From contig JAFWXL010000074.1 of assembly GCA_017545905.1 (NCBI GenBank), positions 1 to 49,721 on the forward strand: DNA of 49,721 bases. The letters are read 5' to 3'. This document shows, piece by piece, positions 35,518 through 38,388 of the stretch. Position 1 is the stretch's first letter. Every line of letters begins with the position of its first letter. Origin of the DNA: Clostridia bacterium (lineage in GTDB: Bacteria > Bacillota > Clostridia > Christensenellales > Aristaeellaceae). A program made the position numbers and the translations under genes. The notes beneath the pieces were generated by a model. That model saw only the letters and a program-made list of their open reading frames with translations, ran no database searches and had not been told where the DNA came from.

Positions 35518-35547
35518 ATTATACCATATCCCACAGTCAATTGACAA
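35518..35547 (-). promoter_or_regulatory. Promoter of the RluA-type gene
   Basis: Minus strand: TTGTCA (35547-35542), 18-nt spacer, TATAAT (35523-35518). Its -35 shares bases with the -35 of the divergent promoter. Confidence 0.55.
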
Positions 35548-35569
35548 AGCCCCGGTATGCAGGTACAAT
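35541..35569 (+). promoter_or_regulatory. Promoter of the membrane/Hsp70-like pair
   Basis: TTGACA (35541-35546), 17-nt spacer, TACAAT (35564-35569), 36 nt before the first ATG. Confidence 0.75.
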
Positions 35570-35604: not shown

Positions 35605-36456
35605 ATGACCGCTGCCACCGCCTTTGCCCATCGCGAGGATGCCCTCCTTGCCCAGCTTGAATCCGCCAAAAATATGGATCAGGCCATAAGCGCCTGCGTC
35701 CTGACGCTGGAACAGGTCGCCTGCGAGCTGGCGCAGGACGAGCAGGACGAGCAGGCCCGACAGAGACAGCAGGCCGTGATGGCCGCCGTGCGCCGCGCAC
35801 CGCAGCTGCTTCGCAGCGTATGCGCCAGAGGCGAACTGGTCATCGGCGAAAACACGCCCGCTCAGCGCGATACAAAGAACCAGATTCGCCGCATCGTGAA
35901 GATTGCCGGCGCTTTTCTGCTGGGCGCGCTGTGCCTGTATGAAATGATCAACGGCAGAGCGCTCTTTGCGCTTTTTCAGCTGGTGGGCGCCAATCTGCTG
36001 TTTTTCTCCGGTGAAAGCAAGCCGGCAGCCCCTGCCGATGCGCAGCCGCGCGGCGTCGCCTTTGCCGATGCAAAGATGCTTCTTCGCTCGCTGCGCGAAT
36101 TGTGTCAGGCGGCCGATATCTGCGTGGCCGATCTGATGCTCCTTGAAAAGGATACCGGCGCCGTGCGTCTTTCCGGCACAGCGGACGACGCCATGCTCGA
36201 CCTGCTGACCGCGCTGATGGAGGCAAAGGCCTCCGGCCGCAGCGAGCTGGCGCTGCGCAGCCTTTCTCAGGCGGAGCAGTATCTGCGCATGCTGGGCGTG
36301 GAGCTGATCTTCTTTGACAGCAAATACGCCGACCTCTTTGATACGCTGCCCACGATGGGTGAAAGCCGGACCATCCGTCCGGCGATGATACAGGACGGCA
36401 AGCTGCTGCGGCGCGGCGTAGCCGCGCTCAGCACAGGAAGGGGCGTGGGCGCATGA
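35605..36456 (+). CDS. Two-span membrane protein partnered with Hsp70-like ATPase
   Basis: The protein has 283 residues from ATG 35605 (CGGGGGA upstream; ATG 35584 is a longer alternative). The N-terminal 90 residues are helical and charged (LAQDEQDEQARQRQQAVMAA). Two adjacent hydrophobic helices at about 97-113 and 117-134 form a membrane hairpin. A soluble C-terminal half (about 150-283, LRSLRELCQAADICVADLML) follows and looks like a small alpha/beta domain. I recognise no family. Its stop overlaps the Hsp70-like start (ATGA), which strongly suggests a functional pair. Both ends would face the cytoplasm. Confidence 0.75.
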   Translation: MTAATAFAHREDALLAQLESAKNMDQAISACVLTLEQVACELAQDEQDEQARQRQQAVMAAVRRAPQLLRSVCARGELVIGENTPAQRDTKNQIRRIVKIAGAFLLGALCLYEMINGRALFALFQLVGANLLFFSGESKPAAPADAQPRGVAFADAKMLLRSLRELCQAADICVADLMLLEKDTGAVRLSGTADDAMLDLLTALMEAKASGRSELALRSLSQAEQYLRMLGVELIFFDSKYADLFDTLPTMGESRTIRPAMIQDGKLLRRGVAALSTGRGVGA

Positions 36457-38357
36457 AGATTCTGGGCTTTGACCTGGGCGACGGCGAGAGCGCCATCACG
36501 CTGCTGGACAGCGATTCGACCATCGAGCCCCGCGTGCTCATGCTGCAGGGCCGCACAAGCATCCTGTCCTCCATGGGCGTACGCGACGGGCACGTCGTCG
36601 TGGGCGACGATGCCAATGTGCTATCCGGCGCCACGGACGTGCGCGTGCGCTTCAAGTCCCGCTATCTGGTCGATCCTGACGCATCAGGCGATATCCGCAT
36701 ATTTGCGCAGGGCGTGATGAGCATGCTTCTGCACGAGGAGCCTGCGCTGATGGCGCAGGTCACGCGCACGGTGATCGGCTGCCCTGCCGGCTGGGGCGAG
36801 GGCAGACGCGAGCAGTATGCGCGGCTGATGGAATCTGCCGGTTTCCCGAACGTGCACGTGGTGCCGGAGCCGCGCGCGGCATTTCTCTATGCGCGCCATG
36901 CTCGCGGCCTTCGCATTGATCCCGCCCTCATGCAGCAAAGCGCAATGGTCATTGATATCGGCTCCTCCACGACCGATTTTGCCTATATCGTCGACGGCCA
37001 CCAGCAGGATCTTTCGCTCTTTGGCGATACAAATCTGGGCGGCGGCGTGCTCGATGAGCTGATTCTTGCGCGGGCTATCCGTCTCTCGCCCGACAGGAAG
37101 GCGCTTGAGCGTGTGATGATGTTCAGCCCGGCATGGAAGAGCTTTTGCGAGCTGGAAGCCAGAAGGCTCAAAGAGCAGTATTTCACCGCTGAGGAAAAGT
37201 GGCAAAGCCAGACGCTGACCAAGCAGATCATCGTCTGCTACGACGAAACGCTGATGCTTGAGCTCTCGCTGGACGGCGACGCAATTCACGAGATCATTCA
37301 CACGCCGTGCGCGGCGCTTGGCGGACGCAGCTTCGTCGCCTGCCTGAATGATGCGCTCACAGCCGCAAAGAAGATGAGCAGCAACTGCGTGCCGCAGGTT
37401 GTGATCATCACAGGCGGCGCTTCCCGCATGGGCTTCTTCCGTGAGGCCTGCCGCGATGCATTCCCCGACAGCCTGCCTGTGCTGTGCCCTGAGCCTGAGT
37501 GCTCCATCGCCCGCGGACTTTCCTATGCCGGCTTCGTGGACGAAAGCCTGAAGATCTTCCGGCAGGAGATCTCCTCCATCGCCCGCGGCGACCGCCTGCA
37601 GTCCGCCGTCAGCGCCTGTGTGCACGAGCTCTATCAGCCCATCGCTTCGGCACTCTTTGAGGTTGCCCGCGACAGCGCGCTGGAGGCCGTGAAGCTCTGG
37701 CGCAGCGGCGGCGTGAATACCATCAAAGAGCTGGACGCCCTGCTTGAAAAGCAGATCGCCGAAGCTTTTCTGAGCGAGGCCGCCTGCGAGCGGATCCGTC
37801 CGGATCTTGTCCGCTGGACGCAGGCGCTGCTTGTGCGGCTGGAAAACGAGCTTGAGGCGCTGTGCATCCGCTGCGGCGTGCCGCCGGAGAAGATGGCGCT
37901 GGGCAGCACACAAGTCAGCACCGGAATCAGCAGCGTGAATCTCTCCATCGCCGGCGCGCTTGGCATGGATATGCTCTCGGGGCTGCTTGGCGTGATCCTT
38001 GGCGTTGTGGGCGCGAGCATCTGCGGCGGAAGCGGCATCGCGCTCATCGGCACAGGCCCTGCCGGCATCATCATCGGCGCGGCGACCGGCGTGCTGCTTG
38101 CGCTGCTGGGCCGGGGCGAAATGAAAAAGCTGTTCAGCAGCATGCAAATCCCCGTGCCTCTTCGCCTGCTGGTCACCGACAGCGCGGTGCTCGCGGGCAT
38201 CAACCGCCAGCGCGGGGAGATCGAGCGCTCAATCATCATCGCGCTGTGCGATCCGAGGAACGGCTTTTCGGCGCGCCTTTGTCAGAGCATCTCCGATACG
38301 CTCGGCGCGCAGCTGGAGCGCATGGCGCAAAGCGCAGAGATGTCCATCAATGCGTAA
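36453..38357 (+). CDS. Hsp70-like ATPase with glycine-rich hydrophobic C-terminal segment
   Basis: A 634-residue protein. Residues 1-365 are an Hsp70/actin-fold ATPase: phosphate-1 GFDLGDGESAI (5-15), VIGCPAGWGEGRREQY (107-122), PEPRAAFLYA (138-147), phosphate-2 VIDIGSSTTDF (166-176) and adenosine motif VIITGGASRMGFF (317-329). There is no standard substrate-binding domain. Instead there is a helical region (370-480), then a Gly-rich hydrophobic stretch at about 497-553 (SGLLGVILGVVGASICGG and GTGPAGIIIGAATGVLLALL) that could insert in a membrane or pack as a glycine zipper, and a helical tail. No DnaJ or GrpE is adjacent. It is probably a membrane-acting ATPase with the 35605 protein; the role is unknown. 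Confidence 0.85.
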   Translation: MKILGFDLGDGESAITLLDSDSTIEPRVLMLQGRTSILSSMGVRDGHVVVGDDANVLSGATDVRVRFKSRYLVDPDASGDIRIFAQGVMSMLLHEEPALMAQVTRTVIGCPAGWGEGRREQYARLMESAGFPNVHVVPEPRAAFLYARHARGLRIDPALMQQSAMVIDIGSSTTDFAYIVDGHQQDLSLFGDTNLGGGVLDELILARAIRLSPDRKALERVMMFSPAWKSFCELEARRLKEQYFTAEEKWQSQTLTKQIIVCYDETLMLELSLDGDAIHEIIHTPCAALGGRSFVACLNDALTAAKKMSSNCVPQVVIITGGASRMGFFREACRDAFPDSLPVLCPEPECSIARGLSYAGFVDESLKIFRQEISSIARGDRLQSAVSACVHELYQPIASALFEVARDSALEAVKLWRSGGVNTIKELDALLEKQIAEAFLSEAACERIRPDLVRWTQALLVRLENELEALCIRCGVPPEKMALGSTQVSTGISSVNLSIAGALGMDMLSGLLGVILGVVGASICGGSGIALIGTGPAGIIIGAATGVLLALLGRGEMKKLFSSMQIPVPLRLLVTDSAVLAGINRQRGEIERSIIIALCDPRNGFSARLCQSISDTLGAQLERMAQSAEMSINA

Positions 38358-38363
38358 TTGTTT

Positions 38364-38388
38364 GGGGAGGGATTCGTCCCTCCCCTTT
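38364..38388 (+). terminator. Terminator of the Hsp70-like operon
   Basis: GGGGAGGGA-TTCG-TCCCTCCCC followed by a short T run. Confidence 0.8.

What the first reader, a model, noticed from the sequence alone, without database searches (positions are those of the whole stretch)
35605..38357. Translationally coupled membrane protein and Hsp70-like ATPase with a hydrophobic glycine-rich C-terminus
The second gene has all Hsp70/actin nucleotide motifs but no substrate-binding domain. Its C-terminal half is helical with a Gly-rich hydrophobic block near residues 497-553. The partner, overlapping by 4 nt, has a two-helix membrane hairpin and no known family. No DnaJ, GrpE or cell-shape genes are adjacent. 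A membrane-acting chaperone-like or filament-like machine is possible and seems undescribed.
Basis: partly seen in the sequence, partly recalled or inferred. Interest (0 to 1): 0.7.

Follow-up and report, generated by a model that had tools for sequence, protein, structure and literature searches.

The report
Two-gene membrane Hsp70-like ATPase module
An uncultured gut bacterium carries an apparently undescribed pair of genes, a chaperone-type ATP-driven switch that ends in a probable membrane-inserting tail and a membrane protein that almost always travels with it, which may be an ATP-powered machine working on the cell membrane.

Summary
35605-36456 (283 aa) and 36453-38357 (634 aa) overlap by ATGA, between a strong promoter-like site and a terminator: a self-contained two-gene operon. 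The ATPase has an Hsp70-type nucleotide domain (DnaK lysine-70 equivalent in 70 of 70 aligned relatives), no Hsp70 substrate domain or linker, and a C-half with a glycine-rich hydrophobic hairpin. The partner has a two-helix hairpin, a conserved C-terminal head and no known family. In 200 genomes of the same GTDB family each profile hits 69, 68 in common. The partner is upstream in 76 of 80 related loci (74 within 70 nt). A cyanobacterial plasmid and a contig of the viral collection keep the pair. The C-half resembles the trunk and paddle of bacterial dynamin-like proteins (27 of 52 isolated C-halves hit the LeoBC profile), but reversed controls show this is largely composition. GrpE likeness of the partner's head is only suggestive. 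Best reading: a membrane-bound Hsp70-type switch with a dedicated membrane cofactor. A filament role is disfavoured. Searches found no description of the pair.

The parts
35541..35569 (+). sigma-70-like promoter TTGACA-17-TACAAT
   Evidence: 11 of 12 consensus matches; 5 promoter-like sites in the region on both strands against a mean of 0.9 in shuffles; consensus only
35605..36456 (+). partner gene, 283-aa membrane protein, no known family
   Evidence: partner upstream of the ATPase in 76 of 80 loci
35893..36009 (+). partner membrane hairpin, residues 97-135 (two hydrophobic segments)
   Evidence: hydropathy scan; 66 of 67 partners have two or more such segments
36265..36453 (+). partner C-terminal head, about residues 221-283, with the motif PA...(D)G.LLRRG
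   Evidence: motif pattern in 62 of 67 partners, 0 of 67 reversed; GrpE likeness only suggestive
36453..38357 (+). Hsp70-type ATPase gene, 634 aa
36453..37526 (+). nucleotide-binding domain, about residues 1-358
   Evidence: profile of 70 ATPases matches DnaK over profile positions 3-358, E 5.1e-16; hhalign with 17 DnaKs E 2.3e-18 over 2-335
37566..38354 (+). C-terminal half (residues 372-634) with membrane hairpin; not an Hsp70 substrate domain
37974..38111 (+). glycine-rich hydrophobic hairpin, residues 508-553 (resembles a dynamin paddle)
   Evidence: G525 65 of 66, G526 66 of 66, G535 67 of 68, G538 64 of 67, G553 65 of 69 where a residue is aligned; the LeoBC match of the isolated C-half covers it
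38364..38385 (+). intrinsic terminator, 9-bp stem
   Evidence: consensus only

Best explanation
A two-component membrane machine. The ATPase is an Hsp70-type nucleotide switch in which the usual peptide-binding half is replaced by a different, mostly helical tail that carries a glycine-rich hydrophobic hairpin. The partner is its dedicated membrane cofactor: an N-terminal helical region, a two-helix membrane hairpin and a small C-terminal head, all but the hairpin probably in the cytosol. Proposed cycle (inferred): the partner holds the ATPase at the inner face of the membrane; ATP binding and hydrolysis change how the tail and its hairpin sit in the bilayer or on membrane proteins; the partner's head regulates the cycle, possibly by promoting nucleotide exchange. 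The work is most likely done on the membrane or its proteins (remodelling, repair or quality control), not on soluble clients. Shown: co-conservation, operon, Hsp70-type catalytic residues, no detectable Hsp70 substrate domain, conserved hydrophobic hairpins in both proteins. Inferred: physical complex, topology, secondary structure of the tail, function of the head, and the membrane as target.
For: A profile of 70 ATPases hits DnaK/Hsp70 over positions 3-358 (E 5.1e-16). K68 aligns with DnaK K70 and is invariant in 70 of 70, as are E139, D168, T173 and D175. No substrate-domain match (P 0.39), no Hsp70 linker (0 of 70) and no J-domain HPD in partners (0 of 67). Partner and ATPase C-half profiles each hit 69 of 200 family genomes, 68 shared. 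Partner upstream in 76 of 80 loci: 26 overlap, 47 are 0-60 nt apart, 1 at 67 nt, 2 over 1 kb. Distance correlation of the two families 0.94 over 63 pairs (shared ancestry not removed). A Calothrix plasmid and an IMG/VR contig keep the pair: the partner profile finds their upstream genes at 4.6e-12 and 3.3e-14 (database size set to 4000). Some relatives have membrane-linked neighbours: dynamin-like GTPases in 4 loci, FtsH within about 130 nt upstream of the partner in 6 (one further FtsH family-checked).
Against: No structure and no biochemistry. Two genomes of the genus have the ATPase unlinked from the partner or without a partner found. The FtsH neighbourhood lies within one genus and may be one inherited arrangement. 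No third neighbour is conserved: after the pair, the commonest family of neighbours is in 15 of 80 loci. Some relatives lack the glycine-rich hairpin (L115, L119, L121, L044), so it is not indispensable to the family. The window's genome is an incomplete draft (77.8% complete, 115 contigs).
Confidence: 0.5

Rival explanations
1. ATP-driven counterpart of a bacterial dynamin: the C-half is truly homologous to the dynamin-like trunk and paddle, and an Hsp70-type motor has taken the place of the GTPase. With its partner it assembles on and reshapes the membrane.
For: 27 of 52 isolated C-halves match PADLOC's LeoBC (dynamin-like) profile at E up to 0.1, best 5.8e-7, the window's own 0.0069, while no Pfam family matches more than 2 of 52. 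The distant L225 ATPase matches LeoBC positions 334-553 of 601 at 3.1e-11. 7 of 20 dynamin-like proteins outscore the best of 254 hydrophobic control ORFs, and each of the 7 scores higher than its own reverse. Four loci sit beside dynamin-like genes.
Against: 5 of 20 reversed dynamin sequences also outscore all 254 controls, and a reversed profile of 8 dynamin tails puts 38 of its top 40 hits among 4449 ORFs in the ATPase family, just as the forward one does (best E 6.9e-4 against 3.2e-5): most of the likeness is composition. The full-length window ATPase had no PADLOC hit at E up to 1. The Pfam bacterial-dynamin helical family PF21808 was not among the hits of P0002 or among the 25 of 32 families listed for the C-halves. 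A joint alignment of dynamin tails gave hhalign 19.8, reversed 19.7. The window's locus shows no dynamin-like neighbour among the genes scanned.
Confidence: 0.2
2. Actin-like filament scaffold: the ATPase polymerises like BeeR or MreB with ATP and is anchored to the membrane by the partner and its own tail.
For: The best single-sequence matches are BeeR: NCBIfam 6.1e-10, PDB 8r2n 4.5e-8. Pfam MreB_Mbl is just over its cut-off.
Against: The 70-member profile prefers Hsp70s (BeeR is not among the 60 rows shown of 120). The Hsp70-type lysine is invariant and faces a glutamate in the BeeR alignment. The BeeR score is far below that family's cut-off (38.6 against 530 bits).
Confidence: 0.12
3. Conflict or envelope-stress module: the pair senses or answers membrane damage, for example by phage, and is mobile in some lineages.
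For: Patchy spread (69 of 200 in the family; 2 of 348 in the phylum); copies on a plasmid typed as conjugative and beside HerA-like ATPase genes in L225 and L211; dynamin-like and kinase neighbours in some relatives. PMC11090510 (passages and one section) describes predicted defence operons (CoCoNuTs) with Hsp70-like, HerA-like, kinase and glycine-zipper genes.
Against: In the window's own genus the ATPase is in all 29 genomes searched, own included, more like a core gene. Neither full-length window protein had a PADLOC hit at E up to 1. The CoCoNuT Hsp70-like proteins are described as keeping a substrate-binding domain and lacking efficient hydrolysis, and those passages name no membrane partner.
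Confidence: 0.12
4. Ordinary Hsp70 paralogue with a degenerate substrate domain, next to an unrelated co-transcribed membrane protein.
For: Hsp70-type nucleotide domain.
Against: The C-half shows no substrate-domain match and has its own conserved residues; the partner is co-conserved.
Confidence: 0.04

Closest known systems
Hsp70 / DnaK (PF00012, TIGR02350)
   Same: Nucleotide domain; DnaK K70 lysine, glutamate, aspartates and threonine conserved
   Different: No detectable substrate-binding domain, no D[VIL]LLLD linker, DGE in place of TTN in the first phosphate motif, hydrophobic hairpin in the C-half; 33.1 bits against a TIGR02350 cut-off of 822.55
BeeR and other bacterial actins (NF053558, PDB 8r2n)
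   Same: Actin/Hsp70-fold nucleotide motifs; best single-sequence hit
   Different: K68 faces a glutamate, far below the family cut-off, extra 260-residue tail. BeeR is described as a three-stranded filament in PMC11929497 (part 1 of 2 of the whole text read)
Bacterial dynamin-like proteins, LeoA/LeoBC type
   Same: C-terminal region with a glycine-rich hydrophobic segment; LeoBC profile matches 27 of 52 C-halves. A passage of PMC4159319 calls the LeoA paddle glycine rich
   Different: Hsp70-type ATPase instead of a GTPase; likeness largely compositional
GrpE nucleotide exchange factor (PF01025)
   Same: Helix followed by a small C-terminal head; global profile score 13.4, reached by 0 of 150 column shuffles
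   Different: hhalign probability only 0.5-5%, weak for the head alone, no Pfam GrpE hit; the partner is a membrane protein
CnuD Hsp70-like proteins of CoCoNuT systems (PMC11090510, passages and section 10 read)
   Same: Hsp70-like ATPases in predicted operons with kinases, HerA-like ATPases and glycine-zipper proteins, as near some distant relatives here
   Different: Described with substrate-binding domain and HEAT repeats and with McrBC-type partners; no sequence comparison with the window protein was made here

Membership tests
Hsp70 chaperone | Hsp70-type nucleotide domain with the DnaK K70 lysine | tested here: met
   K68 in 70 of 70
Hsp70 chaperone | C-terminal substrate-binding domain | tested here: not met
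   hhalign of C-half against DnaK C-half P 0.39; no convincing solved relative, best E 0.084
Hsp70 chaperone | conserved hydrophobic interdomain linker | tested here: not met
   0 of 70 against 12 of 17 DnaKs (pattern recalled)
Hsp70 chaperone | ATP-dependent peptide binding | not testable with these tools
   needs purified protein
Bacterial actin (BeeR/MreB) | score over the curated cut-off | tested here: inconclusive
   BeeR 38.6 against 530 bits, not met; Pfam MreB_Mbl 27.5 against 27, just met
Bacterial actin (BeeR/MreB) | ATP-dependent polymerisation | not testable with these tools
   needs purified protein
Dynamin-like protein | dynamin GTPase domain | tested here: not met
   no Dynamin_N hit in P0002 at E up to 1
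Dynamin-like protein | helical trunk with lipid-binding paddle at its tip | tested here: inconclusive
   LeoBC profile 27 of 52, but reversed controls nearly as good; no structure
GrpE | match to the GrpE family and its C-terminal domain | tested here: inconclusive
   no Pfam hit; profile tests suggestive only
J-domain protein | HPD motif | tested here: not met
   0 of 67 partners

The most novel reading that the evidence does not exclude
An ATP-powered dynamin analogue: an Hsp70-type motor fused to a dynamin-like membrane-inserting tail and run by a membrane-anchored GrpE-like exchange factor, so that the Hsp70 nucleotide cycle is used to reshape or mend the bilayer instead of folding proteins.
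Probability: 0.15. Interest if true: 0.87.

Novelty: new variant of a known kind. Interest (0 to 1): 0.6.

Why it matters
Hsp70s are known as peptide-binding chaperones. Here the same motor is coupled to a membrane hairpin and to a dedicated membrane partner in dozens of species, with distant copies in a cyanobacterium and elsewhere. If it works on membranes, it widens what the Hsp70 cycle is used for and gives a small, testable two-protein system. It would also link the Hsp70 and bacterial dynamin worlds, whose genes sit together in some relatives.

Tried and rejected
Family searches with the partner (Pfam, NCBIfam, PADLOC, PHROGs, PDB sequences) gave only weak hydrophobic or helical matches that I take as chance; the strongest, E 1.4e-4 to designed helical proteins in the PDB, covers a helix. 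The C-half gave no convincing PDB relative (best E 0.084, colicin A 0.38).

GrpE homology of the partner's head was my own idea from the motif. For and against: 0 of 150 shuffles reached it; 1 of 191 natural windows beat it in global and 2 of 191 in local mode, one of them the partner family itself (fam13, 5 of 5 members); with the last 75 or 90 GrpE columns 0 of 100 shuffles, with the last 60 columns 10 of 100 (local) and 2 of 100 (global). Only 28 of 30 GrpE loci were used. I keep it as suggestive.

Dynamin homology of the tail: reversed controls took away most of the claim. In one search, 6 of 260 drawn controls were ATPase-family ORFs (scores 232-378); I removed them after seeing them, leaving 254. 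Overall 14 of 20 dynamin-like proteins score higher forward than reversed.

I checked whether dynamin-like neighbours track the loss of the standard hairpin: of 71 ATPases, 7 lack it by eye (L044, L111, L115, L117, L119, L120, L121); 4 of these 7 have a dynamin-like neighbour, against 0 of the 64 others (for the window only the neighbours scanned). Contig lengths differ and the 7 are related, so this is a lead only.

Weak partial partner hits at class and order level (3 of 291 and 5 of 248 genomes, E 2.7e-6 to 9.4e-5) were not followed. Alignments used part of the material: A3 has the window plus 66 of 76 partners, A4 the window plus 69 of 80 ATPases, A5 52 of A4's 70.
Full report
What is there. 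The two genes are as described: partner 35605-36456 (283 aa) and ATPase 36453-38357 (634 aa), sharing ATGA. A promoter-like site (11 of 12 positions) lies at 35541-35569 and a 9-bp terminator at 38364-38385, so this looks like a self-contained two-gene operon between a divergent pseudouridine synthase gene and an SH3-repeat protein gene. A G-rich stretch before ATG 35605 and the 283-aa ORF of the nearest relative support that start.

The ATPase head. As a single sequence it is modestly over the Pfam cut-offs of HSP70 (28.5 bits) and MreB_Mbl (27.5 bits), and its best NCBIfam and PDB matches are BeeR actins. With 70 sequences aligned the picture changes: the profile matches DnaK over positions 3-358 (E 5.1e-16), and hhalign against 17 DnaKs gives E 2.3e-18 over residues 2-335. 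K68 aligns with DnaK K70, the catalytic lysine of Hsp70s (its role is recalled), and is present in 70 of 70, as are E139, D168, T173 and D175. In the alignment to BeeR, K68 faces a glutamate. A family mark is G-D-G-E where DnaK has G-T-T-N (70 of 70; variable in the four distant relatives).

The ATPase tail. Residues 372-634 do not match the DnaK C-half (P 0.39), any solved structure convincingly, or any Pfam family in more than 2 of 52 members. The Hsp70 linker is absent (0 of 70). Two hydrophobic segments, 508-524 and 537-553, form a glycine-rich hairpin in which G525, G526, G535, G538 and G553 are near-invariant. 27 of 52 isolated tails match PADLOC's LeoBC profile, a dynamin-like protein (best 5.8e-7; the window 0.0069), although the full-length window protein gave no PADLOC hit; a distant relative, L225, matches it over 253 residues at 3.1e-11. 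Seven of 20 dynamin-like proteins outscore all 254 hydrophobic controls, but so do 5 of the 20 reversed, and a reversed tail profile ranks the ATPases first just as the forward one does. The likeness in composition and layout is real; common descent is not shown. A passage of PMC4159319 describes the LeoA paddle as glycine rich.

The partner. It has a membrane hairpin (residues 97-135) and a C-terminal head with the motif PA...G.LLRRG (pattern in 62 of 67). Pfam, NCBIfam, PADLOC, PHROGs and PDB sequences give no family. It has no HPD motif (0 of 67), so it is not a J-protein. The head resembles the GrpE C-terminal part; tests are suggestive and weak for the head alone.

Pairing. Among 60 relatives, own genome included, the ATPase is in all 29 genomes of the genus and the partner in 28. 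In 200 genomes of the family each profile hits 69, with 68 in common. The partner-only genome, G375, has an ATPase start right after the partner, cut by the contig end; the ATPase-only genome, G473, has a 248-aa gene just upstream with a similar C-terminal end but no significant homology. Among 80 loci from species genomes (the best 80 of 157), 76 have the partner upstream: 26 overlapping, 47 within 60 nt, 1 at 67 nt, 2 more than 1 kb away. Of the 4 without, 2 lie at a contig start and 2, L068 and L072, have 10 kb upstream without it. In the more divergent copies the layout varies: reversed order in L210, two ATPases after one partner in L212, 8-10 kb between the two in L206 and L207. Pairwise distances in the two families correlate at 0.94 over 63 pairs, as expected for genes inherited together.

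Spread. Candidatus Limiplasma and Candidatus Aphodomonas records also carry it. Outside the family the module is rare: at class level the only full partner hit among 291 genomes is the window's own; at phylum level the ATPase tail is in 2 of 348 genomes. Distant copies: a plasmid of Calothrix brevissima typed as conjugative (27.9% over residues 1-477, E 5e-56), an IMG/VR contig and G736. The upstream genes of the first two match the partner profile at 4.6e-12 and 3.3e-14. The G736 upstream gene has a hydrophobic hairpin-like stretch but no significant match.

Context in relatives. Dynamin-like GTPases lie beside the pair in L044, L111, L120 and L121 (Dynamin_N E 1.3e-9 to 6e-30), with an M48 peptidase in L044 (Pfam) and a relative of it in L121. 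FtsH lies within about 130 nt upstream of the partner in 6 loci of the genus and 1.5-1.7 kb away in 2 more. Kinase genes lie near divergent copies and a HerA-like ATPase gene near two. No third gene is conserved across the set.

Mechanism. I read it as a membrane-bound Hsp70-type switch with a dedicated membrane cofactor, acting on the bilayer or on membrane proteins (0.5). The membrane target, the complex and the head's role are inferred. The bold version, an ATP-driven dynamin analogue, is not excluded (0.15).

Literature. Searches of open PubMed Central text found no description of this pair or of an Hsp70-dynamin operon; most subscription papers are not held. Seen: PMC11929497 (part 1 of 2 of the whole text), PMC6104087 and PMC4159319 (passages), PMC11090510 (passages and section 10), PMC12987570 (word search without hits); all others only as search listings with abstract starts. 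PMC11090510 describes other Hsp70-like proteins in predicted defence operons; a relation to this pair was not tested by sequence.

Noticed in passing
L071, L073, L074, L075, L080, L081 (partner flanks); L046 and L069: ftsH lies directly upstream of the partner in part of the genus, and the partner stays near ftsH in G012, where the ATPase lies elsewhere (family check of the L069 copy).
   Followed up: partly
L111 2407-4674: A dynamin-like GTPase next to the pair carries a match to starch-binding module CBM26 (1.2e-9) at residues 616-678; unusual fusion.
   Followed up: no
L225 1050-10478: Contig from the viral collection with a Sel1-repeat protein, partner, a 196-aa ORF, ATPase (755 aa) and a HerA-like ATPase in a row; looks like a larger version of the module. 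PMC11090510 describes HerA-like and glycine-zipper genes in CoCoNuT operons; no link was tested.
   Followed up: partly
L206, L207, L210, L211: Divergent copies sit near long kinase-like genes of 924-1073 aa (only those of L206 and L211 were scanned).
   Followed up: partly
L044 7298-14806: A second, divergent copy in genus member G007 lacks the glycine-rich hairpin and is followed by an M48 peptidase, a 533-aa protein with no clear family and a dynamin-like GTPase.
   Followed up: partly
L226 8009-8992 (Calothrix plasmid): The deposited partner gene stops before the head, and a head motif appears in another frame just after it: a frameshift or a sequencing error.
   Followed up: no
L047 and L048: The ATPase of G012 and G006 lies near long ORFs of AEREAAEQA-type repeats and a predicted protein of about 650 aa.
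   Followed up: no
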